This document shows, piece after piece, positions 3,708 through 26,749 of a stretch of 64,000 nucleotides of DNA. Source of the DNA: Rhodovastum atsumiense (GTDB taxonomy: Bacteria; Pseudomonadota; Alphaproteobacteria; Acetobacterales; Acetobacteraceae); the NCBI RefSeq assembly GCF_937425535.1, contig NZ_OW485601.1, positions 5,129,501-5,193,500 on the forward strand, read 5' to 3'. Under the pieces are notes generated by a model. It had not been told where the DNA came from. It did not search any database and worked only from the letters and a program-made list of their open reading frames with translations. The translations under genes and the position numbers were made by a program. Position 1 is the first letter of the stretch; every line of letters starts with the position of its first letter.

Positions 3708-3755
3708 CGACAACAGGGGCACAAGCGACCAAACACCGTTCGAACGAGGTTGATA

Positions 3756-7169: not shown

Positions 7170-7274
7170 TGCCGGGGTGCATCGCGGTGGGTCTGCCGGA
7201 TGACACGACCATGAGCGAGCGGTGATTAGACCGAATTCCCCTCTTTTCGGGCGTCGCAAGTGCGATCGAGAGAA

Positions 7275-7815: not shown

Positions 7816-8046
7816 GTGAAGACGATCGCGCTCGCCGCCGCCAAGGGCGGTGTCGGTAAGACGACGCTGGCTGCCGCGCTGGCCACCGCCGCCACCCTGT
7901 ACCGTCCCGGCATCAAGGTTGCCCTGGCTGATCTCGATCCACAAGGATCGCTGGCCCAGTGCTGGAACGCCCGCGCTCTCCCGCAGCCTACCCTGATCGA
8001 TCTGACTGGCCGTCCGCTCGCGCCTACTCGCTGCGGAGTGAGGTGA
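7816..8046 (+). pseudogene. ParA-like ATPase, truncated to its N-terminal 76 codons
   Basis: Starts at GTG 7816 after an AGGAG at 7804-7808. The first residues, MKTIALAAAKGGVGKTTLAA, are a deviant Walker A typical of ParA/MinD ATPases, followed by ADLDPQGSL. They match the intact gene at 32287 almost exactly. The frame diverges after GRPLA, precisely where a 27-bp inverted repeat begins, and stops at 8046. The rest of the ATPase, including the Walker B-like LDCPPG region, is missing. The gene was probably cut by the palindromic sequence or by recombination at it; the peptide is very unlikely to function. Confidence 0.75.
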
Positions 8047-8131
8047 TGTGGTCCCTTCGACTGCCGCAGCTTCCCACAACTCAGGCGGGAAGGAAGGGCC
8101 ATCCACCACATCACCTCACTCCGCAGCGAGT
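8026..8131. repeat. Perfect 27-bp inverted repeat with a 52-base loop
   Basis: Bases 8026-8052 are an exact reverse complement of 8105-8131 (the arm core is CTGCGGAGTGAGGTGATGTG). Inside the loop CCCTTC (8053-8058) can pair with GAAGGG (8093-8098), extending the hairpin. The left arm starts at the point where the parA reading frame breaks. The perfect symmetry suggests a recent origin or a functional cruciform or recombination end. Confidence 0.8.
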
Positions 8132-10522: not shown

Positions 10523-10816
10523 CTACTTCGCGGTGGCGGTCGGCATGAACAGGACGGTCCCGCCGGCGCGCCAGAGGATGGAGCATTCGTAGGCTTTATG
10601 GTGCTGCCTGCAATCCGTGATGAAGTCCTCGAACGCCGCGTGGTGGCGCGGGATGCCGATGGCAGTGATGCCGAGGCCGACGAACGCCACCGCGGAGAGG
10701 GTGCAGCCAAGCGCGGCAGCGCCGACCGAGCGGCGCCGCAGAACGACCCGCATGGCTGCGGCGGGGACGCCACAGGCGCAGGTCACCAGGGCGGCGATCA
10801 GAAGGTACTGGGTCAT
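10523..10816 (-). CDS. Small two-helix membrane protein A
   Basis: A 97-residue protein starting MTQYLLIAALVTCACG with two predicted membrane helices (about 4-25 and 35-57). A short soluble tail contains the HHKAYECSILWRAGG motif. Its start overlaps the stop of the upstream membrane gene (ATGA at 10813-10816), so the two form one operon. The tail motif ECxxLWRA recurs in its neighbour, showing they are paralogues. I do not recognise the family. In boundary copy 2 only about 30 bp of this gene survive, at about 43895-43925. It could be a small stress, immunity or phage-interference peptide, but nothing in the sequence proves that. Confidence 0.6.
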   Translation of the reverse strand: MTQYLLIAALVTCACGVPAAAMRVVLRRRSVGAAALGCTLSAVAFVGLGITAIGIPRHHAAFEDFITDCRQHHKAYECSILWRAGGTVLFMPTATAK

Positions 10817-11121
10817 CCAGGATCTTTCCTCGACGGCGATGTGACGATCACAAGGCCGACACTGTCGGCTCGCCAGAGCGCGATGCACTCATGGCGCGGG
10901 TGGTCCTGCGGACAGGCCTGCATGAAGGCGTCGTGCCTGGCGGTGATGCGCAGGCCGACCGAGCATCCGATGGCGAGGGCGCCGCTGCACACGGCGCCCA
11001 GCACGCAGATGAAGATGACCTGGAAGCGCGACGTGTGGTGCCGGTGGCCGATGAAGGCGAGAAGAAGCGCGGCGGCAGCCATGAGGACTGCAGCGCCGGC
11101 GCTCATCCAGACGATGATCAT
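10813..11121 (-). CDS. Small two-helix membrane protein B (paralogue of A)
   Basis: A 102-residue protein starting MIIVWMSAGAAVLMAAAALL, with two hydrophobic helices (about 5-25 and 35-58) and a tail carrying HPRHECIALWRAD. The helix-helix-tail layout and the ECxxLWRA motif match the downstream gene, with which it overlaps by four bases. The start ATG 11121 is 15 bases from a strong palindrome (11136-11167) that may hold the promoter or an operator. The function is unknown. Confidence 0.6.
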   Translation of the reverse strand: MIIVWMSAGAAVLMAAAALLLAFIGHRHHTSRFQVIFICVLGAVCSGALAIGCSVGLRITARHDAFMQACPQDHPRHECIALWRADSVGLVIVTSPSRKDPG

Positions 11122-11135
11122 GAGTGTCCTTGCAG

Positions 11136-11167
11136 ATGCACGAACGCGCGTTTGCGCGTTCGTGCAT
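11136..11167. repeat. 14-bp perfect palindrome with GTTT loop, upstream of the membrane pair
   Basis: ATGCACGAACGCGC (11136-11149) and its exact reverse complement (11154-11167) enclose GTTT. A second palindrome CATTCAGCTGAATG follows at 11165-11178. It lies between the end of the integrase gene and the start of the membrane-protein operon, so it could end integrase transcription or be an operator. Confidence 0.65.
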
Positions 11168-11195
11168 TCAGCTGAATGAAAACTCGCGCGAACGC

Positions 11196-12389
11196 TCAGT
11201 CGCGCTTGTCGCCGCCGTCGTCGTCGGATTCTGGCAGAAGGTTCCAGGCGCGCGCGGCCGTGGCGGCTGTTTCCACGAGGCGCTGCGGCGCGTGGTGGGC
11301 GTAGCGGGTCGTGGTCGAGAGCTGCGTGTGCCCGAGCACGGTCCCGATCTCGTTCAGCGGTGTGCCGGCGTTGGCCAGCGCCGAGGCGAACGAGTGGCGC
11401 AGGTCGTGGATGCGCAGCTCGTCGGGTAGCCCGGCCAGCCTCTTCGCCCGCTGCCACGCGCCGCGCAGGTTCTCCAGAGGCCGGCCCTCCCGGCGGTCGC
11501 TCGGAAAGACGTAGGCACAGCCGTCAATCCGCCGGAGCCACTGCGCCTGCAGGATCCGCACCGCCACCGGCGAGAGCGGGACGTGCCGCGTCCGCCCGCT
11601 CTTCGAGCGCGGCACGGTGAGCAGGAGCCGGTCGAGGTCGACGTTGTCCCACGTCGCCCTCAGCACCTCCCGCTTGCGCGCGCCGGTGACCACCAGCAGG
11701 GCGAGCGCGGCTGCGGCGCTCCGGCACGGCTCGCCGTCAAGCGCGTGCATGAGCGCCTGGGTCTGCTCGGCGGTGAGATAGCGGTCGCGGTGCTGCTCGG
11801 GGAGCATGCCGGGCGAGGCCGCGGCGTTGCGTCCGTCGAACAGGCCCCACCGCAGCGCCAGGTTCAGCATCGAGCGCAGCGTGGCGAGGTGACGATTGAC
11901 GCTGGAGGCCGAGAGCCCTTCGGCGATCAGCGCGCGGCGCAGGGCGGCGACGTCGTGCGGGGTGATCTCGTCGAGGCGTTTGCGGCCGAGCGCGGGCAGG
12001 ATGCGGAGGCGCAGGTAGGCCTCGTAGTTGGCGGCGCTGCGCAGGCGCTCCCGCACGTGCGGCACGTAGCGATCCCGGGTGAAGTCGGCCAGGGTGGGGA
12101 CGGCGCGCAGCTTCGCCCGCTCGGCGACCGGGTCGGCGCCCAGGCTGACCGAGGCCTTGATCTGCTCGGCTCTTCGCCGGGCCTGCTCGGCGGTGACGTC
12201 GCCGAGGCGTCCGAGCTTGACCTCGCGGGCGCGGCCGCGCGCGTCGGCGTAGCGAAGATAGAAGGTGGTCACCGACCGGCGGCGCTCGGCGATGAAGCCG
12301 TGGAGGGCGTCGTCGAAGATGCGCTGCTTGGCGGTGCCCTTGGGCAGGGGCGGGAGGCCGCGGAGTAGGGCGGTGGTGAGGCGGGGCAT
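11196..12389 (-). CDS. Tyrosine recombinase (phage-type integrase)
   Basis: A full-length integrase of 397 residues: an N-terminal arm-binding region with the DUF4102-like fold typical of island integrases, a core-binding helical domain (about 100-185), and a catalytic domain. Catalytic residues are visible: Arg238 in TGARKREV, Lys263 in RSKSGR, His328 and Arg331 in IHDLRHSF, His354 in LGHTQ and nucleophile Tyr363 in TTRYAHH. It would cut and rejoin att sites; the nearby tRNA-Arg(ACG) 3' half is the obvious candidate. The 3' half recurs at 43928-44455 and a short central piece at 27366-27477, so related integrases repeatedly inserted here. No excisionase is adjacent. Confidence 0.92.
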   Translation of the reverse strand: MPRLTTALLRGLPPLPKGTAKQRIFDDALHGFIAERRRSVTTFYLRYADARGRAREVKLGRLGDVTAEQARRRAEQIKASVSLGADPVAERAKLRAVPTLADFTRDRYVPHVRERLRSAANYEAYLRLRILPALGRKRLDEITPHDVAALRRALIAEGLSASSVNRHLATLRSMLNLALRWGLFDGRNAAASPGMLPEQHRDRYLTAEQTQALMHALDGEPCRSAAAALALLVVTGARKREVLRATWDNVDLDRLLLTVPRSKSGRTRHVPLSPVAVRILQAQWLRRIDGCAYVFPSDRREGRPLENLRGAWQRAKRLAGLPDELRIHDLRHSFASALANAGTPLNEIGTVLGHTQLSTTTRYAHHAPQRLVETAATAARAWNLLPESDDDGGDKRD

Positions 12390-13178: not shown

Positions 13179-16100
13179 GGCCCGTTCCCGCGTGGGCGGG
13201 GGAGCCGACGACCGCGCCGAACAAGCTGGCAACCGTGCAGGTCCATCCCCGCGTGAGCGGGGGAGCCATCGTCGCCCTGCTCGTCGCCGGCGTGATGCTG
13301 GGTCCATCCCCGCGTGGGCGGGGGAGCCTTGTGGACCTTGAGGGGACCGCAAGCATGACCGGGTCCATCCCCGCGTGGGCGGGGGAGCCCACCGGTCCCG
13401 AGACCGACTGCACTCCCGACAAGGTCCATCCCCGCGTGGGCGGGGGAGCCGATCGCCCGCAAGTCCATCCGCAATCGTCATAGGGTCCATCCCCGCGTGG
13501 GCGGGGGAGCCTCTGACCCACACCCTGCCGGGATGGCTGGATCGGGTCCATCCCCGCGTGGGCGGGGGAGCCCCCTCCGCCTGCCCATCCTCGTAAAGCG
13601 GGTCAGGTCCATCCCCGCGTGGGCGGGGGAGCCGCGTCCGGAACTTTGCAGCACGGGAGATGCAACGGTCCATCCCTGCGTGGGCGGGGGAGCCCCCGTG
13701 TCCTCGCGATAGAGGGTGGATGCCGTGGGTCCATCCCCGCGTGGGCGGGGGAGCCTGCATCGTCTCGTCTGGAATGGACTTGTATGGGGGTCCATCCCCG
13801 CGTGGGCGGGGGAGCCCTGGATTTCCACAGCACCGCCGCCGCCGTCCTGGGTCCATCCCCGCGTGGGCGGGGGAGCCCAGACATTATATCCGCCGCCGCC
13901 GAACGATTTGGGTCCATCCCCGCGTGGGCGGGGGAGCCGCGGTTGGGTCCAGTTTTCCACCGGTAACCCGGGGTCCATCCCCGCGTGGGCGGGGGAGCCG
14001 AACCACGCTGATAGTCCGATAGGGCCTGACGGGGTCCATCCCCGCGTGGGCGGGGGAGCCTCGTGATGCCTACTGATATCGATCCCAACACGGGGTCCAT
14101 CCCCGCGTGGGCGGGGGAGCCCATGACCGCCGCCCTCGATGCGCTGTGGGCGCGGGTCCATCCCCGCGTGGGCGGGGGAGCCTTCATGCACGCGGAAACG
14201 AAAGTCTCGCATGCAGGTCCATCCCCGCGTGGGCGGGGGAGCCCGCCGGTCAGCGCCAGCGCGGCGCCGCTCGTCGGGTCCATCCCCGCGTGGGCGGGGG
14301 AGCCCACGCTCCGCGCACGATGGATACGTTGCCCACGGGTCCATCCCCGCGTGGGCGGGGGAGCCGTTGCGGCGGATGCCGGCGAGATACCGAAGAACGG
14401 TCCATCCCCGCGTGGGCGGGGGAGCCGAGTAGAAAATCGAGCCGACGCCATATGCAGTGGGTCCATCCCCGCGTGGGCGGGGGAGCCCTGTAATGGGCTG
14501 ACCTTATAACCCTTATAACGGGTCCATCCCCGCGTGGGCGGGGGAGCCCCCGCGCGCCTGCCCCTCGTCCTCGTCCACCAGGGTCCATCCCCGCGTGGGC
14601 GGGGGAGCCGCTGCCCATTCTGTGGCGAGCTGTGCATTCATGGGTCCATCCCCGCGTGGGCGGGGGAGCCGATGATCTCTGCCGAGGTCAGCGGGGGAGG
14701 CGGGGTCCATCCCCGCGTGGGCGGGGGAGCCGCCGGTATCATCCTCCACCATCGCCATGAGGCGGGTCCATCCCCGCGTGGGCGGGGGAGCCCTTGCGCG
14801 TGGCTCCGCGCGATCTATTGACAGGGGTCCATCCCCGCGTGGGCGGGGGAGCCTTGCGCGGTGTGACGGATCACTTCCGTGAGCTGGGTCCATCCCCGCG
14901 TGGGCGGGGGAGCCCGCCGCTTCCGGCTGTCCGGGCACTGCGATCTGGGTCCATCCCCGCGTGGGCGGGGGAGCCGTGATTCCGAAGGGGCAGCCTAGTT
15001 TAAAGGCAGGTCCATCCCCGCGTGGGCGGGGGAGCCCCAGGCGGCCCCGACAATCATGCAAGCGGAGGGGGTCCATCCCCGCGTGGGCGGGGGAGCCTCG
15101 TCGAGGGAGCGGTACTCGACCTCGGTGTTGGGTCCATCCCCGCGTGGGCGGGGGAGCCCGGCGCATCCGGGCAGCAGGGAAACGATATCGGGGTCCATCC
15201 CCGCGTGGGCGGGGGAGCCTAATACGTTTATGCGCGCGGTGAAACGACATGGGGTCCATCCCCGCGTGGGCGGGGGAGCCGCTGCGCGCTCGGGAGTCGG
15301 GGCGCCTGGTGCGGGTCCATCCCCGCGTGGGCGGGGGAGCCAATGTCCGCGAGGGCATGGAGATCCTGATCGAGGGTCCATCCCCGCGTGGGCGGGGGAG
15401 CCCGCTGTGCCAGTGCTGGCGGGTGATGCGGCTGAGGTCCATCCCCGCGTGGGCGGGGGAGCCGCAACAACCGACCCCCTCACCTATGAGAGTCAAGGTC
15501 CATCCCCGCGTGGGCGGGGGAGCCGCCTCCGCCTGTCCAACTCCACGCCACGCGACGGGTCCATCCCCGCGTGGGCGGGGGAGCCCCGGGTATCTCTCGC
15601 CCCAGGTAGGGGCAGACAGGTCCATCCCCGCGTGGGCGGGGGAGCCGGAGCCGCGTCCACATAGCGGCGCGACTGCTCGGGTCCATCCCCGCGTGGGCGG
15701 GGGAGCCTGTTGTTGATGAAGCGTGGCGGATATTTGGTAAGGTCCATCCCCGCGTGGGCGGGGGAGCCTCCTTAGTGTGACGCCGGTCGTCAAGCAGCGG
15801 GGGTCCATCCCCGCGTGGGCGGGGGAGCCTCGGCCGCGTGCAGGCGTTCGCGGAGTGCCTGGGGTCCATCCCCGCGTGGGCGGGGGAGCCTATTTGCCCA
15901 AGTTGGGAATGGGCTTCGATCCGGGTCCATCCCCGCGTGGGCGGGGGAGCCACGGCACGATCCATCAACCTGCTGTCCGATGCGGGTCCATCCCCGCGTG
16001 GGCGGGGGAGCCGGCGGCTCGGTGTCGCCTTCGGCGGTCTGGTGCGGTCCATCCCCGCGTGGGCGGGGGAGCCCATGCCGAGGATGGATTCGCGGACCCA

Positions 16101-17780
16101 GACCGGGGTCCATCCCCGCGTGGGCGGGGGAGCCCGCCTGCTGCACGGCGGAGCGCGCCTGGTCCAGGGTCCATCCCCGCGTGGGCGGGGGAGCCCAGCA
16201 CCTGGCGCGGCTGGAAGCGGACGCTCCGGGTCCATCCCCGCGTGGGCGGGGGAGCCGTGGGCAGCGCGGTGGACGTGGTGTCGCTGCCGGGTCCATCCCC
16301 GCGTGGGCGGGGGAGCCCAGCCACCTCTGCAGCAGTCAATTTCTGTCCAGGGTCCATCCCCGCGTGGGCGGGGGAGCCCAGGACGGCGGCGGCGGTGCTG
16401 TGGAAATCCAGGGTCCATCCCCGCGTGGGCGGGGGAGCCCCGTCAGGACATCTGACACGTCAGAAGGGCTGAGGTCCATCCCCGCGTGGGCGGGGGAGCC
16501 CGCGGTCGCTCGAAATCCAGGTCGGCAAGTCCAGGTCCATCCCCGCGTGGGCGGGGGAGCCGCAGGGCGCCTGTTGCCGCAGTCACTGGGGCGGGGTCCA
16601 TCCCCGCGTGGGCGGGGGAGCCGGGCTTTCATGGTCCCTCCAGTCAGGAGATCGGGGTCCATCCCCGCGTGGGCGGGGGAGCCGCTTTCTCTGGAGCCAG
16701 TGACGCTCTGGGGAAGGGTCCATCCCCGCGTGGGCGGGGGAGCCCCAAGAGCGGCGCTTCTGGATGTCGCAGATCGGGTCCATCCCCGCGTGGGCGGGGG
16801 AGCCGCGGTGCGCGTGGTCTGCGTGCCCGGCGTCGAGGGTCCATCCCCGCGTGGGCGGGGGAGCCTGCGGAGCCACGACGAACAACCCTTCGTCGTGGGG
16901 TCCATCCCCGCGTGGGCGGGGGAGCCTGGCTGCGAGATCAACCCCGCGCTCTTTGCTCGGGTCCATCCCCGCGTGGGCGGGGGAGCCGCGAGCGCGGACC
17001 ATGCAGACGGCGTGAGGACGGGTCCATCCCCGCGTGGGCGGGGGAGCCCGCACCGGCCCGGCCATGACGAAGCCACGAGCAGGTCCATCCCCGCGTGGGC
17101 GGGGGAGCCTCCTGGCTGGCGCGCAGGCGGGCACCTACAAGGGGTCCATCCCCGCGTGGGCGGGGGAGCCTGCACATTCAGCGGGCTGCTGACGCCCCTG
17201 CGGGGTCCATCCCCGCGTGGGCGGGGGAGCCGACAATGGCGGCAACGAATTTGCCTGATACAAGGGTCCATCCCCGCGTGGGCGGGGGAGCCTCTCTCGC
17301 GATCGACACCGGTATCACCGACGTGGGTCCATCCCCGCGTGGGCGGGGGAGCCCCGCTGCGGCGTGCGCACGGCGGGCGGCTGCGGGGTCCATCCCCGCG
17401 TGGGCGGGGGAGCCGGTCCGGTGTTCCATGGCGCGGGCCCGGCTGCGGGTCCATCCCCGCGTGGGCGGGGGAGCCCTGCCGCAGACGGCGCGACAGGTCA
17501 TCGCCGCGGGTCCATCCCCGCGTGGGCGGGGGAGCCCGGCCAGGTCGATGACTGGTGCCGCGTCCATCAGGTCCATCCCCGCGTGGGCGGGGGAGCCATG
17601 CTGGCGGAACTCACGGTCCCGCAGAGCAACGGTCCATCCCCGCGTGGGCGGGGGAGCCATTCCAGCAACGACACCGGGATAACCTGGGTCAGGTCCATCC
17701 CCGCGTGGGCGGGGGAGCCGAAACCGCCACGCCGCTTCGGCAAAGCGCATCGGGTCCATCCCCGCGTGGGCGGGGGAGCC
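13179..17780 (-). CRISPR. Type I-E CRISPR array, 76 repeats and 75 spacers
   Basis: A 28-nt invariant core begins every 61 nt from 13179 to 17753, except one 60-nt step (16717 to 16777), giving 76 repeats and 75 spacers. Read on the minus strand the core starts GGCTCCCCCGC and ends GCGGGGATGGACC, with GC arms that form the stem cut by Cas6e. The base after the core is variable, as in E. coli, so the unit is 29 + 32. The minus strand is the probable transcript: cas genes lie to the right and repeats decay at the left, where the repeat at 13179 begins GGCCCGTTCC (plus strand) and the one at 13240 has GCGTGAGCGG. One other variant (CCCTGCG) lies at 13667. Spacers 13817-13849 and 16379-16411 are exact reverse complements. 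Confidence 0.98.
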
Positions 17781-17806: not shown

Positions 17807-18139
17807 TTACTTTGTCAATGAGCCAAGGTTGTCGTTGGGTGGGGCATTTTCGCGTTTTGCGAGTAGAAGGCCTTGATAGTCTCGCAGGTCCCGCGGCGGA
17901 AGCCCCAGACTCAGCAAACCCTGCCGACCGGGCGCTTTTGGGTCGCGCCATGTCATCACCGCACTGCCCTGTCGCATCTCACTGTGCCAGTCGCTCAGTA
18001 CGTGCCATACCCGATCCCGAACGCCGTTGGTCATCGTTGGCGACGTGTATACGCCGGGGGCGATCTCGAGCATGACCGATGCCAAGAAACCTCTGAATCG
18101 ATCCGGTACATCACGCGTTACGATCAGCGTCATCGGCAT
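17807..18139 (-). CDS. cas2: CRISPR-associated protein Cas2, type I-E
   Basis: A 110-residue Cas2 of the CasE-linked type: TLIVTRDVPDRFRGFLAS at the N terminus, then MLEIAPGVYTSP and VWHVLSDWH, closely following the E. coli layout (about 94 residues). It dimerises between Cas1 dimers in the spacer-integration complex. The C-terminal tail (NAPPNDNLGSLTK) is longer than usual and its coding sequence probably overlaps the CRISPR leader. The start lies inside the end of cas1 (29-base overlap), showing tight coupling. Confidence 0.93.
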   Translation of the reverse strand: MPMTLIVTRDVPDRFRGFLASVMLEIAPGVYTSPTMTNGVRDRVWHVLSDWHSEMRQGSAVMTWRDPKAPGRQGLLSLGLPPRDLRDYQGLLLAKRENAPPNDNLGSLTK

Positions 18140-18995
18140 CGAATAGTTCCTTAATCCGATCGATCATGCGTGGGATGACCTGTTCGTCACGGAACATTCG
18201 TCCGGCGACGCCACGAAGTTCTCGTTCGAGATTGGTGTTCGGATCGCGCAGCGCTTTGCGCGCAACGCCAAAGGCGAGCGGCAGCGTGACGCTGTCACGG
18301 AACAAGTCGGCGATGTCGAGGACAAAGGCGTTCGCCGAATCCTCGTGGATGAAACCAAGCGGTGCCAGCGTCGCGGTCGCCGCCACGGCGATGAACGCCG
18401 CTGCTTCCACCGCTGTTGCCGCGTGATTGATCGCTTGGTTCGGCAAGTCTGCCGCTGAGGGATTGGCGCGATCATAGCGGCGGCCGTGCCAGGGAATATT
18501 GAACTTCTCCGCCTGGAGGCGATACGTCTCCTTCATCCGCGCTCCCTCGATGCCTCTCAGCACATCGAGGTCGCGGTGCGGCAGGATCTCACCGAGCCGC
18601 CATGCGTAGAGGCGTCGCGCGATGGCGATGCGGGCTCCATCGGCATCTGCCCAAACGCGCGCCTGGCGTCGCGCGAGACGGCTGTCATCCGGCCCGAGCG
18701 GCATTGCCGTGTAGGCACGCACACCATCGTCGCCTGAAGCGACGAGGCCAGTGCCATGTCGGGCCATCAGCCGAAGCGCATCGTGCGAGACCGTCGAGCC
18801 GGGCCCGAGCACGATCAACGACAGCATCTGGTAGGGAATGGCATAGTCCCCGGCATCCAGGTCCCCACCGCCGGCCGTGCGAAAGCGCAGGGTGCCGTCT
18901 TCCACAAAAAGATTGCCGCGCGCGAGCCAGATCAGCCCATGACGGTCTGCATGGGGAACCCGCGCAGTCTCAAGTCCAAGGCGCCCCTTCAGCAT
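18111..18995 (-). CDS. cas1: CRISPR-associated integrase Cas1, type I-E
   Basis: A 294-residue Cas1 that inserts prespacers at the leader end of the array. Active-site residues can be placed by comparison with E. coli (E141, H208, D218, D221): here Glu150 in RGIEGARMKETY, His217 in GFIHEDS, and Asp227 and Asp230 in VLDIADLF, with identical spacing. An N-terminal beta domain precedes the helical catalytic domain. The start overlaps the end of cas6e by 7 bases. Nothing suggests inactivation, so adaptation should work. Confidence 0.96.
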   Translation of the reverse strand: MLKGRLGLETARVPHADRHGLIWLARGNLFVEDGTLRFRTAGGGDLDAGDYAIPYQMLSLIVLGPGSTVSHDALRLMARHGTGLVASGDDGVRAYTAMPLGPDDSRLARRQARVWADADGARIAIARRLYAWRLGEILPHRDLDVLRGIEGARMKETYRLQAEKFNIPWHGRRYDRANPSAADLPNQAINHAATAVEAAAFIAVAATATLAPLGFIHEDSANAFVLDIADLFRDSVTLPLAFGVARKALRDPNTNLERELRGVAGRMFRDEQVIPRMIDRIKELFDADDADRNA

Positions 18996-19825
18996 CGTCG
19001 CTCGGGGGGGTGCAGCAACAGCATGCCGAAGCCAAACGCACGGTGGCGGCCGACCCCACGAGCGATCAGCTTCGCGAACCCCTCCGGGTCGGCAACTTCC
19101 AACGTTCCAGCCATTTCAGCAACCGGCCGCGCGATCCGATGAACCGGGCGTTCCGACATTTCCGGTGTCGCCAATCCACGCCGGAACAGCAGAGTCCGCC
19201 GGACTGCGCACACCCGTGTCTGCAGCACCCGCACGGTGCCGTTCTGCTCCATCTGTTCGCGCAACCAGTCCTGATAGACCGTTGCACGGTCCACTTCTGG
19301 ACGCGGGTCGCCGAGGCAGGGGCGTGGGGATTCCGCAGTACGTCCGGCCGCGTCAAGCGCCAGCAAGTAGGCATCGACTTCGCTGCCCGGCGCCCGCAGA
19401 TCCGCCCCACGCCCGAGCCGTCGCACCGGGCAGACCGTCACCGAGAAGCCGAGCCGCTGCCCGCGCGGAAAGCGCGTGGGCATCGGTTTGGCGCTTACCT
19501 GTGACCAGGCGATGCAGTCACGCGCCAACTCGCTCGCGTCCATTGCCCGCGCCATCAAGTCCGGCACGGGACGGCACGTGTAGGCAAGCAACGGCAAGAG
19601 GGGCAGGGTAGCTGCGCAGTCGGCGCGTTGCACCGTGAAAGGCCGGGGGGCGAGATCGCCGAACAGAGCGGCCAACAGTGCGTGCAGCACATAGCCCGGA
19701 TCTGGCTCGGCGCTCTCACGGCGGCCGCCGAGCCGTTGCGCGTGTGCGAAGGCCGCCAGCGCGCGGCTTTGGACCGGCAGGTAAAGCACGTGCAGCGGGT
19801 CGACAGGGAACGAAGGGGCATTCAT
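18989..19825 (-). CDS. cas6e: CRISPR RNA endonuclease Cas6e
   Basis: A 278-residue Cas6e (CasE/Cse3) that cuts pre-crRNA at the base of each repeat hairpin and remains in Cascade. The N-terminal ferredoxin-like fold contains PDPGYVLHALLAALFG, matching the usual Cas6e segment, with His28 or His48 as candidate catalytic histidines. The C terminus carries the glycine-rich loop RHRAFGFGMLLL of RAMP proteins. It overlaps cas5e upstream by 4 bases and cas1 downstream by 7. Confidence 0.94.
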   Translation of the reverse strand: MNAPSFPVDPLHVLYLPVQSRALAAFAHAQRLGGRRESAEPDPGYVLHALLAALFGDLAPRPFTVQRADCAATLPLLPLLAYTCRPVPDLMARAMDASELARDCIAWSQVSAKPMPTRFPRGQRLGFSVTVCPVRRLGRGADLRAPGSEVDAYLLALDAAGRTAESPRPCLGDPRPEVDRATVYQDWLREQMEQNGTVRVLQTRVCAVRRTLLFRRGLATPEMSERPVHRIARPVAEMAGTLEVADPEGFAKLIARGVGRHRAFGFGMLLLHPPERRC

Positions 19826-20562
19826 AAGCCGTCATCCTGACGTGCCGGCAGGCGGGCACGAAACACCGTCCGCTCGCCGCTGTGGAACTGGTTCGCCCAG
19901 TCCCGCTGGTCCACCACGCGCTCTGGCTCGCGAGCCAGAGGATCGGCTCCCGGCCAGCCTTCCCAGGCCGGCCACTCAACCGTGACCAGGGCTTCGGCGT
20001 CAGACTCCTCGGCAACGGCGGCGAGCACCGCCGCTCGTAGGGTCGGTGCTGTGACCATCCCGCGTACGATCGGTGTCGAGGGCAGGCAGGGCTTGCGGCC
20101 GATGAACAGAGGTCGGGCGGGCTTGGCGAGCGCGGCGGCGAGATCGGCGAGGGTGGGCGCCTCGTCGTCTGGATCGAGTCGGGCCGCCACCAGCACCGCC
20201 GCGTCGGCCAGATACTGGCGCAGCCGGATATGGGTGCCGCGAGTGGCCTCGCCCTTGCCACGCTCTTCACGCTGGCCACGGGTGGTCCAGCCGGTGTTGA
20301 CCATCCATGGCTGGCCGAGATCGACGGTCTGATAGTCGGTGACGACCTCGCCGGCGCGGACCAGCGCGCCGGCGATGGCCAGCCGCGCCTGCAACCGCTG
20401 CAGGCGCGTGCTGTCCGCGTGCGTCCAACCAAGGGCATTACCGAAAAGTCCGATGAGCAGCGACAGGCCGGGCAGGTCGCGAGTGCCGCCGTGGGCGTCG
20501 ATCTGCGGCCCACCGAACGCCATCAGTGGCGCCTCCAGTCGCAGCAGGAGCACTTCCATCAC
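19822..20562 (-). CDS. cas5e: Cascade subunit Cas5e
   Basis: A 246-residue RAMP protein (CasD) that caps the 5' handle of crRNA in Cascade. The N terminus LLLRLEAPLMAFGGPQID and the LIGLFGNALGW segment are diagnostic for Cas5 of type I-E. The first codon is GTG 20562 immediately followed by ATG 20559; either gives a one- to four-base overlap with the cas7e stop. The length is typical. Confidence 0.94.
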   Translation of the reverse strand: MMEVLLLRLEAPLMAFGGPQIDAHGGTRDLPGLSLLIGLFGNALGWTHADSTRLQRLQARLAIAGALVRAGEVVTDYQTVDLGQPWMVNTGWTTRGQREERGKGEATRGTHIRLRQYLADAAVLVAARLDPDDEAPTLADLAAALAKPARPLFIGRKPCLPSTPIVRGMVTAPTLRAAVLAAVAEESDAEALVTVEWPAWEGWPGADPLAREPERVVDQRDWANQFHSGERTVFRARLPARQDDGL

Positions 20563-21740
20563 GGGGTGCCGGCGACGATTCCACCCGCCCAGGTGGCGAG
20601 TGGCGCCAGGGGCATCGGCTCGGCCGGAAACGCCGCCGGCATTGTGAGCGCAGCAACGCGCCGATCCTCGTCAGGGCCGTACATGGTGTCGAACCGCCGC
20701 AAATACTCGCCGAGCCGATCCAGCGCCGTCTCACCGAGGCTTGCGGCTTCCGGCAGCGCCTGCCGGAAGGCGTTGGCGAGGGTGCGCGGCTGACGCGCGC
20801 CGGCTTCCACCAGCACCGCTTCGGCGTAGGCGTATGGCGCGGTCGAGCCGAGCTTGGCGCCAGGCGAGACCGAGGCGATCAGATGCAGCAGGCGCTCGGT
20901 GACTTGGCCGGCGAGGCTGGCGTCATCGCTGAGGTTTTCGATCAGCTTGGGGAGGTCGATGACGACATAGCCGTAGAACAGGCCGCTGGTCAGTTCGGTG
21001 GTGGAAATCAGGCCGCTGCCGGTTTCGCCTGCCGCCTGCACCAGGTCATCAACCGCAGTGAAATAGTCAGGCTCACTCTCGGCGGCATGGACGGTAAAGG
21101 CGTGGGCGACGTGGATGGCAGCGTCACCGCGGGCAAAGATGTCGGAAGTGACCATGCGCCCGAACAGCGCGCCGTCAAGGCCCGCCGCGGTGCGCAGTGC
21201 TTCCAGATTGGCACGGTTCTGCTTCACGTAGGCCATGGCGGCGGCTTTCGGGTCGGCGGTGCCCTCGGCCAGGATCGCGCGGGCAGCGGCGAGCAGGAAA
21301 TCTATCTCTGGCTGGCCGAGAACGATGACCTGCCCGGTTTCCAGAGTCTTGAGCGCATCTTCCGTCGTCACCGTCCCGACCTTCTTACGGGAGGGCTTAT
21401 CGGCCGCAGCGTCGCCTTTTTCGTTTTTCTGCAACACCACGTCCATCAGCGCCTGTACCACGGCGATCACAGGGGGGACGGCGTGACCTTCAGCCAGCAG
21501 GGGGGCGGCGATTCTTTCGGGGAAGATGCGGCGGGAGCGAACCGTCATCGGCACTCCGAGTGCTTCCAATGACCAGGCGCCGGCGGCCTTGCGCCAGTGT
21601 CGCTTGAGACATTGCGACGAGATGCGCGTGCGCATGCTACCCCCGAAGGGCAGGCGTTTGGCTGCGCCGACATCGTCGCGGTTGAGCAGGGATGCGGCGT
21701 AGGTGGTCAGTGTGTGGATCTGCAGGAAACGCGAGGTCAC
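20559..21740 (-). CDS. cas7e: Cascade backbone subunit Cas7e
   Basis: A 393-residue Cas7 (CasC/Cse4) that forms the six-copy filament along crRNA. The N terminus RFLQIHTLTTYAASLLNRDD and the following GGSMRTRISSQCLKRHWR are family signatures. It starts at GTG 21740, which overlaps the cse2 stop (GTGA). It is slightly longer than the E. coli protein because of a Lys/Asp-rich insertion (KNEKGDAAADKPSRKK). Confidence 0.95.
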   Translation of the reverse strand: MTSRFLQIHTLTTYAASLLNRDDVGAAKRLPFGGSMRTRISSQCLKRHWRKAAGAWSLEALGVPMTVRSRRIFPERIAAPLLAEGHAVPPVIAVVQALMDVVLQKNEKGDAAADKPSRKKVGTVTTEDALKTLETGQVIVLGQPEIDFLLAAARAILAEGTADPKAAAMAYVKQNRANLEALRTAAGLDGALFGRMVTSDIFARGDAAIHVAHAFTVHAAESEPDYFTAVDDLVQAAGETGSGLISTTELTSGLFYGYVVIDLPKLIENLSDDASLAGQVTERLLHLIASVSPGAKLGSTAPYAYAEAVLVEAGARQPRTLANAFRQALPEAASLGETALDRLGEYLRRFDTMYGPDEDRRVAALTMPAAFPAEPMPLAPLATWAGGIVAGTP

Positions 21741-22336
21741 GGTGCGATGCCTTCCGGGAGATCAGTTGCGGTGTCGGGTTCAGAGCCGCCTTTGCCGAAG
21801 GGGCGGAAATAATCGCGGGCGATCCTGCGAGCGGCGTTGTCGGCATCCAGGCGACCGGCCATGCGACCGAACACCAGCGGGGCGGTCTGCACCCAGTCGA
21901 AAGGACGGCGATGGCTGGCGCACCAGCGGGTCGCCGCCGCAAACTCGTAGGCGAACGCATCTGGCCGGTCGGCGCGCAACAGGCGCAGCAGGCGCGGCTC
22001 GCTGTAGCCGCCGCCTTCCCGCGGGCCGCGCAGCGCGGTCCCCAATCCGGTGCCACGCTCGTGGATGAGCGGGGCCATTTCGGCCATCCCGGCGAGCAGG
22101 ACCGCCCATGCGTTTTCGGCGCCACGTCCTTCTGTCCAGCCAGCGAAGTCGGGACGGGTGATGAAACTCCAGAACACGCCGGGCCACGGTCCCTGCCGCG
22201 GGCTCATCCGTCGCAACATGGCGATCGCGCCACGATCGAACAGGCCGGCCCGTTCCTGGAACGCGTGCACGCCGGCCATGATGACCTCGTCGGGGCGTGG
22301 TGCCGTGGGGGAGGATGTGGGGGATGGAGCGCTCAT
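21737..22336 (-). CDS. cse2: Cascade small subunit Cse2 (Cas11)
   Basis: A 199-residue helical protein matching Cse2/CasB: FWSFITRPDF, a RGTGLGTALRG segment and RLLRLLRAD. Two copies stabilise the R-loop in Cascade. Its ATG 22336 overlaps the cse1 stop by 4 bases. The length is normal for the family (160-200). Confidence 0.92.
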   Translation of the reverse strand: MSAPSPTSSPTAPRPDEVIMAGVHAFQERAGLFDRGAIAMLRRMSPRQGPWPGVFWSFITRPDFAGWTEGRGAENAWAVLLAGMAEMAPLIHERGTGLGTALRGPREGGGYSEPRLLRLLRADRPDAFAYEFAAATRWCASHRRPFDWVQTAPLVFGRMAGRLDADNAARRIARDYFRPFGKGGSEPDTATDLPEGIAP

Positions 22337-23925
22337 GCGGCGACCTCCGGCTCCGGTGTGGTTGGCGCGCGGGCCCGTGACAGCAGCACGTGAAGCCCAT
22401 CCTTTCGGTTCTGGAGGATGGCGAAGGCGCGGGCCTCGCCGCGCTCGCGGCGATTGGCGGGACAGGGCAGGGCCGCGATTGCGGTGTCAAAGGTTTGTCG
22501 AGCTATGTCGTAGAGCGCCGCCTCGAAGCCGGTGCGGCCGGCTTCCCGCGCGGCCTCATTCTCGGGTGCGGCCCATGCGTCGAGCCACTCGAAAAAGCGC
22601 GTATCGACGGTCCGGTCGAAGGCGATCAGGAAGGGGCGGACGCGGTCGTCGGTGAAATCCAGCTTCTCAGGCCCGCCTTGAACGAACGCGCGCAGGGCGC
22701 GCCGGAGCGTCTCAGCTACCTGGTTGATCCGATCGATCATCGCCCGGGCAATTTCGCCGACCGCGAGCCGGGTTTCCGCGTTGCCGAAGGCACGCCGCAC
22801 CTGTCCACTGCATCGCACGACGCGGTCGTGCAGGCCATCGGTGCCGCCTTCGCCCCGGACCAGGACGCTGCAGTGAACGAGGCCGGGGCCGTCGCCCTCG
22901 CCCGGAAGCGGCAGCAGCGCGGTTGGAGTACTCAGGCCGGTGCCCTTGGCAGGCTTCCAGTCCAGCAGAATGCGGGCAAGGAGGCGATAGTCGAAACCAT
23001 TGGCGCCGACGGTGAGTGCTGCGGGGGGAACCGCCTCGTTGATCGGCACGAAGGGATCATGGAGTCTGCCATATTGGTCCTTGGCGGCAAGGCGTGCCCC
23101 ATCGGTCGTCTGAAACAGCAGCAATGGACCGCGAGCGCTCGGCACCAGGCGATAGCGACGGCAGATCTCGACGCAGTAGGGATGAACCTCCGCAAGTGAC
23201 AGTGACGATGCGCCGTTCCAGGGCATCAGCCAGAGCAACCCGTGGCCATTCGGGTTGAACAGTGGGGCGGCCTCGTCGAGGAGATTGTCGAAACCTGTGA
23301 CCATCACCTCGGCGGCGCGGCGGACCCGGGTCCCCCAACGCATGTCGGCGATCCGCTCGACCAGCACGCGGCTGCCGAAGCCACCGTTCATGCGGGCGAT
23401 GCCGTATTTGCGTTTGCCGCTGTATCCGGACATCGTTTGTGCATTGATCAGCGCGTAGGCCCAGTCATGCGGGGCGGGGTGGGCGATGCGCGCCTGTTTG
23501 ATGTCATGGTTCTTGGCGGTGACCAGGATGTCGATCTGGTCGGGCTCGGTGCCGACGGCCTTGAACCCGGCCAACTCGTCGGCTGACACCGGCGGCTGCA
23601 GGAAGGCGGGCAGGGCTGGATCCTCGACGACCAGCGTCCAGGCGGCCTCCCCGGCAAGGTCGCCACCGGCGAGGTCGAGAAGCATGGCGTTCCACGAAGC
23701 CTGATCGGGGGGCCACTCTTCGGACGGGCCTGCAAGCAGGCAGAGTGCCGCAATCTGGCTCAGAAAATGAAACCAACCTTGCCGCTGGTGCGCGCCGAGA
23801 CCCGGGAAGCCGATGATCTCGTTACGCCCGATAGCCGCCAAGATCGCTCCCAGGCCCAGCTTTGTCTCGCCGTGGGGGAGGGTGACGGGGAAGCACGCAT
23901 CGACGCGGAGATTATGGGCAGGCAT
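22333..23925 (-). CDS. casA: Cascade large subunit Cse1 (Cas8e)
   Basis: A 530-residue Cse1/CasA that reads the PAM and recruits Cas3. The N terminus NLRVDACFPVTLPHGETKLG and later MSGYSGKRKYGIARMNGG with the GWAYA-like DWAYALINAQ are typical. ATG 23925 is preceded by GGAGAGGG 5 bases upstream on the minus strand. That ribosome-binding site lies at the foot of a 15-bp hairpin (23938-23975), so translation of the Cascade operon may be structure-controlled. It is the first gene of an eight-cistron chain with short overlaps throughout. Confidence 0.95.
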   Translation of the reverse strand: MPAHNLRVDACFPVTLPHGETKLGLGAILAAIGRNEIIGFPGLGAHQRQGWFHFLSQIAALCLLAGPSEEWPPDQASWNAMLLDLAGGDLAGEAAWTLVVEDPALPAFLQPPVSADELAGFKAVGTEPDQIDILVTAKNHDIKQARIAHPAPHDWAYALINAQTMSGYSGKRKYGIARMNGGFGSRVLVERIADMRWGTRVRRAAEVMVTGFDNLLDEAAPLFNPNGHGLLWLMPWNGASSLSLAEVHPYCVEICRRYRLVPSARGPLLLFQTTDGARLAAKDQYGRLHDPFVPINEAVPPAALTVGANGFDYRLLARILLDWKPAKGTGLSTPTALLPLPGEGDGPGLVHCSVLVRGEGGTDGLHDRVVRCSGQVRRAFGNAETRLAVGEIARAMIDRINQVAETLRRALRAFVQGGPEKLDFTDDRVRPFLIAFDRTVDTRFFEWLDAWAAPENEAAREAGRTGFEAALYDIARQTFDTAIAALPCPANRRERGEARAFAILQNRKDGLHVLLSRARAPTTPEPEVAA

Positions 23926-23994
23926 GAGACCCTCTCCTGCTGGTCGTCACGGGGGTGCTTCCGTGACGACCAGCAAAGAGTAGTCCGGGGTCTC
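23926..23994 (-). promoter_or_regulatory. Strong hairpin in the 5' leader of the Cascade operon
   Basis: TGCTGGTCGTCACGG (23938-23952) is the exact reverse complement of 23961-23975, leaving an 8-base loop. Outside it, GAGACC (23926-23931) can pair with GGTCTC (23989-23994), which would enclose the cse1 ribosome-binding site in an internal loop. It lies between cas3 and cse1 and has no T-run, so attenuation or translational control is more likely than termination. Confidence 0.6.
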
Positions 23995-24027
23995 TCGTCG
24001 TGCAAGCGAAACGAGCTGAACCTAGTA

Positions 24028-24114
24028 GGTCTTCCCCGCTGGTGCGGGGGAGCTCAGGCGCCGCTACCGTTGGTAGACCGACTAGCGGTCCATCCCCGCA
24101 GCGGGCGGGGGAGC
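24028..24114 (-). CRISPR. Mini-CRISPR: two divergent repeats and one 32-nt spacer between cas3 and cse1
   Basis: Repeat 1 (24028-24054) has CTTCCCCGCTGGTGCGGGGG in place of the array core. Repeat 2 (24087-24114) has CATCCCCGCAGCGGGCGGGG and ends directly before the cas3 stop codon complement at 24116. The intervening 32 bases (24055-24086) are exactly a type I-E spacer length, and the repeat arms still form GC hairpins. The spacer itself contains CCGCTA and continues to TAGCGG at the repeat border, a 6-bp inverted pair. It may give a crRNA-like transcript from the cas operon. Confidence 0.75.
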
Positions 24115-24115
24115 G

Positions 24116-26749
24116 TCAAGCGGCCTCGGCCAGACGTAAGCCAAGGCGATCATAGACGAATTCCCGCCCGGCGAACCGGAAGTGAAGCTTATCGGGCTCG
24201 GGACGGATCGCCTCCGGGGCGGGATCGGCGGCCGGGGCGATCCCCTCGACCATCCAGGCCGGCACCGGCAGGGTTTGGATCGTCGTGCCGAATGGCCCCG
24301 GTTGGGGCGTCTCAAACCGCGCGACCCGCCGGCCGAGCCCGAGCCGGGTGGCCAGGGCGGCATCGAGTTCGGGTAGCGGTGCAAGGGCTTTCTTCCATGC
24401 AAGCCAGGCCGCCTTCGCGTGGGTGATCTGGGCTATTTGGGCGCCAGTGTTGATTTCGTTCACATGGCGGACCCAGGCTGGGCCCAGCTGGAGCGCCAAT
24501 GTTTTGAGCGCTTCCGGATGGGTGGTGCGCTCGACCAGGTCGCGATTCATGTGGGGGATTCGCCAGATCGGATTGGCTACCAGCGCCAGCCGGGTCGCGG
24601 CGAGGATGGAGAGATCAGGATAGACCTTCCCAAACCCCAGAGGGGCATGGCTTGCCGTACCATTCGGCGATGGCGCGATCGCCTCGATCGGTGGTGCCAG
24701 AACAATCGCGCACGGTGTCGCAAAACCCGCCGGGCGGTCGGGACGGCGATGCCGGTGCAACCGCCCGAAGCGCTGCAACAGCACGTCGCACGGGCAAAGG
24801 TCGGTGATCAGCAGATCCGCATCGATGTCGAGGGACTGCTCCGCCGTCTGGGTCGAGACGGCGATGATGCCGCCACTCTGCGCATCTCTGCCGAACCTGG
24901 CTTCGAGTTCGGCGTCGAGCAGAAACCTGTCCTCCACCGCGAAGCGGGCGTGATGCGGTGCGGGCCGACCGTTGGGACTGAACAGGCAGTCGCTGGGAAC
25001 CAGGGTTTCCAGGGCGCTCTGTGTCGCCTGCGCCAGCCTGACCAGATTGCGGATGACGAGCACGCGGGCGCCCCGGCTGGCGGCATCGGCCGCAAGGGCG
25101 GCCGCATGCCCGGGGCTGGCATCGGCGTCGAGCATGACCGTCACGGCCTTGCCGGCGGCTTCGTCCGGTGGCGGCGCGCCGCAGATCAGGCCCTGGGAGC
25201 CCAACAGCGCCGGATAAGGCACCTCGCGCGCGGTCGCGAGGGTGGGCGGATCACGGAGGGTATTGTGAAGCAAACGATGGCGTGCGGCGGCGCCAAGCGT
25301 GGCTGACATCAGGAAGGTATGGCCGCCTGCCGCCCGATGCTGATCGAGGACGTTGAGCAAGAGCGTTGACATGTAGGCGTCCGAGGCATGCACCTCGTCG
25401 ATCACCAGCAATTGCCGCAGCATGGGGCCCGAGCGCAGCGGCGCGTGCCGCACCCGCATCCCACCGAGAAGGAGTTGGTCGATCGTGCCGACCATGACCG
25501 CGCCGGTGAGATAGCGTTTCGGCGTTTCTACCGCCCAGCCGCGATCGTGCCTCGTATCGGCGGGATCGTCCGGCCACAGGACCGACCAGTCGACTTGGGC
25601 CTGCCCGTCCCGGTCGTCGACACGAAGATACCCGGGCACGGCCAGACCGACCGGGGGGGCCGCCGCTCCGAGCCAGTCGCGCAGCTTCTTCGTGACCCGC
25701 TGCTGCATCGCCACCGCGGAGGCCCGTGTAGGCAGGGCAAAAAACAACCCGTCCACCGCGCGCGCCGCCAGCAACCGCAGGAAGTGGATGAGCGCGGCCT
25801 CGGTCTTGCCGGAGCCCGTTTCCGCCTCCAGGACGCGCACTTCGCCAGGCTCGGGCAAAGGCGCCGAAAGGATCTGCTGCTGAGCCCAGTGCGGCGTGAA
25901 ACCCGGCAGCAGGCGGGCGAACGAAGCGAGGTCGGGTGCCTGTGCCGCCTTCTGCCGTGGGGCCGGCATGATAAACCGGCGCTCCAGCAGCGCCCGCGCC
26001 TGAGCACGTGCCCAGTCGAGTCGCGAGGTGCCACCGTCTTCGCACCAGGGATCGCCGGCAGGGCCGAAAACCGTGCTATCCGAGCCCAACCAATCAGCCC
26101 AGGTCACAATCCCCGCGAATGCGTGCAGGAAACGCGGCGGCAGGATCGTCGGCGAATCAGGCCCGAAAGCGTGCGGAAACCAGAGCGGCAGCGCATCACC
26201 GAGGCGGCGCGCGGCCGTGATCGGATCATAAGTGCCAAGGGGTTCCCAGAGGGTAAGGTCGGCCTCGCCAGTGGCAGGAAGCGCACCGTGATGCGCGAGG
26301 ACCGCGCAGAGCGCCTGGTCCGGGTCAGGAAACCAGTTCACGACATCGTTGAGCCGCAGCGCCGTGATCAGTGCGGTGCGTATTCCGCGCCGCTGTTGCT
26401 CGCTGCCGCGCGAGAGAGGGTGGAACAATAGGTCCATGATTGGACGAACATGCCCCGCGGTCGGGCCGGGCAGAGAGCGAATGCGGTTACGGAAACCAAC
26501 ATTCACTTTCCCTGCGTCATGCAATGCGACCAGGACGCACAGTCGGGCAATCAGGGAAGGCGATATGGGCCCACCAAAGCCCGCCAGATGCCCAAGCCGC
26601 ATCGAGATTGTGGGCAAGGAAAGCAGAGCCTCGGTGACGGCCGCCACGTCGGCAGCATGCGCGTTCAAGGAGAGCAGCATGATCTCGGGGGCAGAACCGA
26701 GGGTCTTGGCGACGGCATCTGCCGGATGCTCAAGGAGGACCATGTGCAC
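24116..26749 (-). CDS. cas3: CRISPR-associated helicase-nuclease Cas3
   Basis: An 877-residue type I-E Cas3 that Cascade recruits to unwind and degrade targets. The N-terminal HD nuclease shows His77-Asp78 (LHDAGK), His100, His153-His154 (AHHGALP) and Asp219 (WADWLG). The helicase has Walker A at 309-316 (AETGSGKT), DEVH at 451-454, SAT at 482-484, and the motif V/VI segments TAEQSLDIDADL and QRFGRLHRHRR. All key residues are present. The reading begins at GTG 26749 or ATG 26743. It is separated from Cascade by about 190 bp holding a mini-array and a hairpin, so it may be expressed from its own promoter. Confidence 0.96.
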   Translation of the reverse strand: MHMVLLEHPADAVAKTLGSAPEIMLLSLNAHAADVAAVTEALLSLPTISMRLGHLAGFGGPISPSLIARLCVLVALHDAGKVNVGFRNRIRSLPGPTAGHVRPIMDLLFHPLSRGSEQQRRGIRTALITALRLNDVVNWFPDPDQALCAVLAHHGALPATGEADLTLWEPLGTYDPITAARRLGDALPLWFPHAFGPDSPTILPPRFLHAFAGIVTWADWLGSDSTVFGPAGDPWCEDGGTSRLDWARAQARALLERRFIMPAPRQKAAQAPDLASFARLLPGFTPHWAQQQILSAPLPEPGEVRVLEAETGSGKTEAALIHFLRLLAARAVDGLFFALPTRASAVAMQQRVTKKLRDWLGAAAPPVGLAVPGYLRVDDRDGQAQVDWSVLWPDDPADTRHDRGWAVETPKRYLTGAVMVGTIDQLLLGGMRVRHAPLRSGPMLRQLLVIDEVHASDAYMSTLLLNVLDQHRAAGGHTFLMSATLGAAARHRLLHNTLRDPPTLATAREVPYPALLGSQGLICGAPPPDEAAGKAVTVMLDADASPGHAAALAADAASRGARVLVIRNLVRLAQATQSALETLVPSDCLFSPNGRPAPHHARFAVEDRFLLDAELEARFGRDAQSGGIIAVSTQTAEQSLDIDADLLITDLCPCDVLLQRFGRLHRHRRPDRPAGFATPCAIVLAPPIEAIAPSPNGTASHAPLGFGKVYPDLSILAATRLALVANPIWRIPHMNRDLVERTTHPEALKTLALQLGPAWVRHVNEINTGAQIAQITHAKAAWLAWKKALAPLPELDAALATRLGLGRRVARFETPQPGPFGTTIQTLPVPAWMVEGIAPAADPAPEAIRPEPDKLHFRFAGREFVYDRLGLRLAEAA

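What the first reader, a model, noticed from the sequence alone, without database searches (positions are those of the whole stretch)
13817..16411. Two CRISPR spacers are exact reverse complements of each other
The 33 bases at 13817-13849 and at 16379-16411 are perfect reverse complements, 42 repeats apart in the same array. The same protospacer was thus captured twice in opposite orientation, with the repeat-adjacent base C on the transcribed strand in both cases. That is consistent with a segment having PAM-type bases at both ends. The two crRNAs would be complementary and could pair with each other.
Basis: seen in the sequence. Interest (0 to 1): 0.72.

Follow-up and report, generated by a model that had tools for sequence, protein, structure and literature searches.

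The report
Same virus fragment stored both ways
A bacterial CRISPR memory array holds one 33-letter fragment twice, 42 entries apart and in opposite directions, most likely because the same piece of invader DNA was captured on two occasions and one copy was inserted backwards; this is a known slip of the machinery, rarely seen preserved in a single natural array.

Summary
Spacers 13817-13849 and 16379-16411 are 33/33 reverse complements, in one 76-repeat type I-E array next to a complete cas operon. They are spacer 65 (older) and spacer 23 (newer), counted from the leader side. Chance is excluded: 200 simulated spacer sets gave longest opposite-strand matches of 9-14 nt. All flanking repeats are intact and normally oriented, so DNA inversion is ruled out; two Cas1-Cas2 insertions of one 33-bp fragment remain.

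In a survey of 114 type I-E arrays (3233 spacers, window included) I found one other exact complementary pair, in locus L104. There one member carries the only A among 56 repeat-adjacent bases (22 C, 31 T, 2 G, 1 A), the mark expected of a backward insertion. Exact non-adjacent recaptures in the same orientation numbered 8.

Overlapping spacers in related arrays suggest PAM AAY, but no protospacer was found, and the C at both ends is weak evidence (28 of 75 spacers end in G). Flipped insertion is published for type I-E, so this is a rare natural instance of a known process. I rate flip about 0.58, double PAM about 0.33.

The parts
13179..17780 (-). Type I-E CRISPR array, 76 repeats (28 nt) and 75 spacers; leader side at 17780, degenerate old end at 13179 and 13240
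   Evidence: the only array of this repeat in the genome
13817..13849 (-). Spacer 65 (older member of the pair); C-first and G-last on the transcribed strand
16379..16411 (-). Spacer 23 (newer member), exact reverse complement of spacer 65
13789..13816 (-). Repeat flanking spacer 65, consensus sequence and orientation
13850..13877 (-). Repeat flanking spacer 65, consensus sequence and orientation
16351..16378 (-). Repeat flanking spacer 23, consensus sequence and orientation
16412..16439 (-). Repeat flanking spacer 23, consensus sequence and orientation
17807..18139 (-). cas2e, 110 aa, no fused exonuclease domain found
   Evidence: TIGR01873 2.6e-24; PF09707 only
18111..18995 (-). cas1e
   Evidence: TIGR03638 3e-82, over cut-off; quick tree
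18989..19825 (-). cas6e/cse3 (just under the curated cut-off)
   Evidence: TIGR01907 4e-10, 40.4 bits against 45.2
19822..20562 (-). cas5e
   Evidence: TIGR01868 2.1e-46
20559..21740 (-). cas7e
   Evidence: TIGR01869 4.4e-87
21737..22336 (-). cse2
   Evidence: TIGR02548 2.6e-19
22333..23925 (-). cse1/cas8e (under the curated cut-off)
   Evidence: TIGR02547 6.7e-16, 58.3 bits against 70.05
24116..26749 (-). cas3
   Evidence: TIGR01587 9.7e-47; TIGR01596 1.2e-11

Best explanation
The array took up the same 33-bp prespacer twice, on two separate occasions with 41 other spacers between them in the array. In one of the two events Cas1-Cas2 inserted it backwards relative to its PAM. Shown: the exact complementarity, the single-base precision of the boundaries at intact repeats, and the order (13817 older, 16379 newer, by position from the leader side). 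Inferred: the source was an invading element met at least twice; one crRNA (which one is unknown) reads from the PAM side and the other does not. By analogy with L104, where the member with the atypical repeat-adjacent base is the older, a backward copy may have come first and left the element free to return. Both crRNAs would be complementary over the whole spacer.
For: Exact 33/33 complement with consensus repeats on all four sides. A second natural pair of the same kind in the survey: L104 7881-7913 (spacer 19) and 7210-7242 (spacer 30), exact, with intact flanking repeats; its spacer 30 has the only A among 56 repeat-adjacent bases, as expected when the PAM-derived base ends up at the far end. 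Same-protospacer recapture is seen elsewhere: 8 exact non-adjacent same-orientation pairs remained after 28 adjacent or block-duplicated pairs were dropped, so 2 of 10 exact recaptures are opposite. Inverse insertion of the 33-bp fragment was reported for a native type I-E system: Streptomyces avermitilis, four protospacers (passages of PMC4762764). Opposite-orientation spacers in E. coli are the subject of Shmakov et al. 2014 (seen only as a reference; not held; content recalled).
Against: No protospacer was found, so neither PAM side is known. Both copies begin with C, which a double-PAM segment predicts slightly better than a flip. If flips were common in this lineage, spacers with an atypical first base (A/G) should end in A/G more often; they do not (62 of 107 against 550 of 1004 distinct spacers), and in the window 0 of 4 do. 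Flip rates reported for type I-F are under 0.5% (passages of PMC5059440). In L104 the lone A could be a chance coincidence (2 in 56).
Confidence: 0.58

Rival explanations
1. Double-PAM protospacer: the 33-bp segment has a functional PAM at each end, so both spacers were inserted in the correct orientation on separate occasions and both crRNAs are functional.
For: Both copies have C at the repeat-adjacent position. Overlapping spacers in related arrays imply PAM AAY in this clade: AAC 3, AAT 1, AGC 1 among the clade's overlaps. L098 has opposite-strand spacers from one region with AAC on both sides (spacers 48/74), so both strands of one region can be sampled. Indirect tests find no general excess of flips.
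Against: Needs AAY at exactly 33-bp spacing on both strands, a few per cent of PAM sites by composition (my estimate, not computed in a call). C at both ends is expected in about 37% of flips (28 of 75 spacers end in G). The L104 pair does not fit it well: one copy starts with A, seen once in 56.
Confidence: 0.33
2. Copying within the array: spacer 65 (or its excised or degraded DNA, for example a Cas1-Cas2 disintegration product) was re-inserted backwards at the leader, without a new encounter with the invader.
For: Explains the exact 33-nt boundaries without a PAM. Disintegration by Cas1-Cas2 exists in vitro in Streptococcus pyogenes (abstract start in a search listing, PMC8390005).
Against: I know of no pathway that exports an intact spacer as a prespacer. 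The array copy is flanked by CC, not AA, on both strands. The source spacer is still in place.
Confidence: 0.05
3. Inversion or template switching at the palindromic repeats produced the inverted copy by ordinary DNA rearrangement.
For: The repeats contain inverted stem sequences, and template switching between inverted arms can invert what lies between (abstract of PMC8604942 in a search listing).
Against: It would carry the asymmetric outer repeat bases along and turn them round. The four flanking repeats are consensus and correctly oriented, and the neighbouring spacers are unrelated.
Confidence: 0.01
4. Assembly artefact.
For: None beyond the repetitive nature of arrays.
Against: A misassembly joins existing repeat-spacer units; it should not reverse-complement one spacer between two correctly oriented repeats. 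The genome is in 9 contigs.
Confidence: 0.02

Closest known systems
Oppositely oriented (complementary) spacers in E. coli type I-E adaptation, Shmakov et al. 2014 (doi 10.1093/nar/gku226)
   Same: Type I-E; the same protospacer yields spacers in both orientations. Title and citation seen in reference lists; content recalled, paper not held.
   Different: As I recall it, those pairs were found across a cell population in an experiment; here both members are fixed in one natural array, 42 repeats apart.
Inverse insertion in the native type I-E system of Streptomyces avermitilis (PMC4762764, passages read)
   Same: A 33-bp fragment is inserted backwards so that the PAM-derived base becomes the last spacer base.
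   Different: Detected experimentally from plasmids with PAM AAG; here the repeat-adjacent base is mainly C and no protospacer is known.
Flipping and slipping in type I-F of Pectobacterium atrosepticum (PMC5059440, passages read)
   Same: Mis-oriented insertion at a low rate.
   Different: Type I-F, estimated under 0.5% of spacers; there the spacers do not include a PAM base.
   Same: Exact 33-nt reverse complement, intact repeats, related Cas1e, same class of repeat.
   Different: 11 repeats apart; one copy has an atypical repeat-adjacent A, so its flip is more readable.

Membership tests
Type I-E CRISPR-Cas | cas3-cse1-cse2-cas7-cas5-cas6e-cas1-cas2 operon of subtype I-E | tested here: met
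   8 of 8 proteins hit type I-E or Cas3 models; cse1 and cas6e are below their curated cut-offs
Type I-E CRISPR-Cas | 28-29 nt palindromic repeat, 61-nt period | tested here: met
   76 repeats, 28 nt + 33 nt
Type I-E CRISPR-Cas | Repeat-adjacent base derived from the PAM | tested here: inconclusive
   The base is strongly biased: C 57, T 14, G 4, A 0 of 75, while the next position is mixed; that it derives from the PAM is inferred, no protospacer being known
Flipped (inverse) spacer insertion | Spacer and its exact reverse complement both present as spacers | tested here: met
Flipped (inverse) spacer insertion | Protospacer with PAM on one side only; complementary PAM at the far end of the flipped copy | not testable with these tools
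   No protospacer found
Flipped (inverse) spacer insertion | Atypical repeat-adjacent base on the flipped copy | tested here: inconclusive
   Window: C on both copies. L104 pair: T and the array's only A
Double-PAM protospacer | PAM-type base adjacent to the repeat in both orientations | tested here: met
   C in both, but 28 of 75 spacers would give C on flipping
Double-PAM protospacer | Full PAM (AAY) on both sides in the target | not testable with these tools
   No protospacer found

The most novel reading that the evidence does not exclude
In the divergent Cas1e lineage to which this system belongs, orientation control during integration is looser than in AAG-type I-E systems. Mis-oriented spacers persist as non-interfering primers that steer a later re-capture of the very same protospacer in the working orientation: a flip-then-correct route to immunity. 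In L104 the presumed flipped copy is the older one, as this predicts.
Probability: 0.12. Interest if true: 0.6.

Novelty: new member of a known kind. Interest (0 to 1): 0.34.

Why it matters
Flipped insertion is known mainly from experiments. A complementary pair fixed in one natural array records that the same fragment was met at least twice and that one copy was either mis-inserted or taken from a two-PAM site. With the L104 pair it makes two questions testable in nature: how often Cas1-Cas2 gets orientation wrong outside the laboratory, and whether a mis-oriented spacer helps or delays immunity. The survey suggests where to look: both pairs lie in a Cas1e lineage whose repeat-adjacent base is C/T rather than fixed G, although with two pairs the concentration there is not statistically firm (872 of 3233 spacers in the variable class; about 0.07 by chance).

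Tried and rejected
Protospacer hunt. Whole array and 37-mer against phages: best 37-mer match 83%, E 0.04, noise. Whole array against plasmids: repeats of other arrays. All 75 spacers against plasmids: one weak 27-nt match to another spacer. Own genome: only the array. Family genomes with the joined spacers at E <= 0.001: 4 of 150 genomes matched, one being the window's own and three with weak matches to other spacers; none to the pair. 33-mer with up to 3 mismatches: 1 of 385 class genomes and 1 of 377 family genomes, the window's own in both. Viral contigs: the 20-mer CTGGATTTCCACAGCACCGC hit one contig, L001, which matches 22 nt and then diverges, 25/33 overall; a search with its small overlapping ORF returned only that contig. 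The opposite-end 20-mer hit 5 contigs, each 22/33. Codon-degenerate patterns for three reading frames: 0. Reference genomes with the 20-mer: 2 hits, L004 and L005, both diverging right after the matched stretch, treated as chance. For the L104 pair: two viral scans and one phage search, nothing.

Flip signature test: spacers with an atypical first base do not end in the complementary class more often, so a high flip rate across the lineage is not supported. DNA inversion, template switching and assembly artefact were rejected on the intact repeats.

Errors of mine: mis-indexed or mis-oriented the repeat-adjacent base for some arrays; one search's list of 'variable' arrays wrongly includes L084, L090 and L092, and labels L084 as Y-class; one search corrects these but mislabels L019 (6 spacers), which leaves 22 arrays and 866 spacers in the variable class. 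One search also mis-oriented L092. One search covered 106 arrays, not the 114. One search stopped with a file error after L004. The tree is the quick version; the careful one did not finish.

Full report
Observation. The window carries one CRISPR array at 13179-17780 with 76 repeats and 75 spacers. It lies beside a type I-E cas operon at 17807-26749 on the minus strand: all eight genes hit type I-E or Cas3 models, with cse1 and cas6e below their curated cut-offs. The array reads on the minus strand with its young end near 17780; the old end has the decayed repeats (13179 with 3 changes, 13240 with 1). Spacers 13817-13849 (number 65) and 16379-16411 (number 23) are exact reverse complements. 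Resampled spacer sets gave longest opposite-strand matches of 9-14 nt in 200 trials. The repeat occurs only in this array in the genome: 76 matches with up to 3 mismatches.

What it is. The boundaries coincide with the repeat-spacer junctions to the base, and all four flanking repeats are consensus and normally oriented. An inversion or template switch at the repeat stems would have turned round the asymmetric outer bases too, so the only process I know that fits is integration of the same 33-bp fragment twice by Cas1-Cas2. Neighbouring spacers are unrelated, so it is not a block duplication.

How unusual it is. I collected loci around type I-E Cas1 genes: 101 loci fetched, of which 10 had no detectable array (8, 1, 1). 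With the window this gave 92 loci, 114 arrays and 3233 spacers. Pairs on opposite strands with at least 26 identities in near-full register: 2 in all, both exact, namely the window pair and L104 spacers 19 and 30. None occurred in the 81 arrays whose repeat-adjacent base is G (2097 spacers) or the 10 arrays with fixed C (264 spacers). Partly overlapping opposite-strand spacers also occur, for example in L098. Exact same-orientation recaptures more than three spacers apart and not part of a block numbered 8, after dropping 24 adjacent and 4 parallel pairs. Recapture of one fragment is therefore a recurring event, and about a fifth of the exact cases seen (2 of 10) are opposite; the numbers are small.

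Flip or double PAM. The repeat-adjacent base in the window is C 57, T 14, G 4, A 0, and in this lineage it is likely copied from the PAM. Where spacers of related arrays overlap, the bases before the protospacer can be read from the other spacer: AAC three times, AAT once, AGC once (lineage members only). AAC and AAT are already catalogued type I-E PAMs (passages of PMC8482600). The window pair has C in both orientations, which suits AAY at both ends but would also follow from a flip in roughly 37% of cases. In L104 the base is T 31, C 22, G 2, A 1, and the single A belongs to spacer 30, the older member of its pair: that copy looks backward. Against frequent flipping, spacers with an atypical first base show no matching excess at the last base (62 of 107 against 550 of 1004). 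I therefore prefer a flip for the window pair only moderately.

Mechanism. In E. coli, orientation is thought to be set by delayed trimming of the PAM end of the prespacer (passages of the review PMC10011333). A prespacer trimmed in the wrong order, or positioned off the PAM, would go in backwards. The backward crRNA has no proper PAM and should not support efficient interference, though it might prime; this step is inference. If the backward copy came first, the element could return and the same fragment be captured again in working orientation. The sequence does not say which window copy is backward.

Complementary crRNAs. The two spacers would form a 33-bp RNA duplex (-75.7 kcal/mol; 60 control pairs averaged -18.6, minimum -29.6). 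Whether they meet outside Cascade is unknown. Because the repeat begins GG and ends CC, each crRNA sees CC before its match at both array copies, so neither copy should be attacked by the other's crRNA if the PAM is AAY.

Lineage. In a quick Cas1e tree of 100 rows, arrays with C/T-type repeat ends and arrays with G-type ends fall on two sides of a deep, fully supported split (28 and 72 rows; 9 rows have no array and one, L019, an unsure label; two loci with both array kinds lie on the G side, in genomes that also hold a Cas1 of the other kind). The window and L104 share a supported six-row group.

Known and new. Flipped insertion and complementary spacers are known for type I-E. Searches for 'complementary spacers' with 'same array', 'flipped spacers', 'inverted spacers', 'reverse complementary spacers', and a five-term query on reverse-complement spacers returned no paper on such pairs within one natural array, but the library misses most subscription papers, so this is no claim of priority.

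Noticed in passing
window 18111-18995; loci L013-L113: Type I-E Cas1 splits into two deeply separated groups that track the base after the repeat: nearly fixed G (2081 of 2097 spacers) against C/T-rich. Overlapping spacers suggest PAM AAY for the second group.
   Followed up: partly
L104 7210-7242 and 7881-7913: A second exact complementary spacer pair; one copy has the only A at the repeat-adjacent position in a 56-spacer array.
   Followed up: partly
L098 28-9032: 147-spacer array with several opposite-strand overlapping spacer pairs and three exact same-orientation recaptures, useful for reading PAMs without the phage genome.
   Followed up: partly
L102 4226-9077: Repeat-adjacent base is nearly unbiased (C 27, T 26, G 21, A 5), suggesting a relaxed PAM in this relative.
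   Followed up: no
L067, arrays 3530-4282 and 10641-12002: Many near-identical neighbouring spacers differing by one to three bases; could be assembly noise in the array or decayed duplications.
   Followed up: no
window 11196-12389, minus strand: Tyrosine recombinase (phage integrase family, PF00589 2e-33) just beyond the old end of the array.
   Followed up: no
window 8026-8131: Perfect 27-bp inverted repeat with a 52-nt loop.
   Followed up: no
phage record JX006077.1, 15677-15885: Saccharomonospora phage PIS 136 matches the window array in ten pieces at about 70% identity, possibly a small CRISPR-like repeat array on a phage.
   Followed up: no
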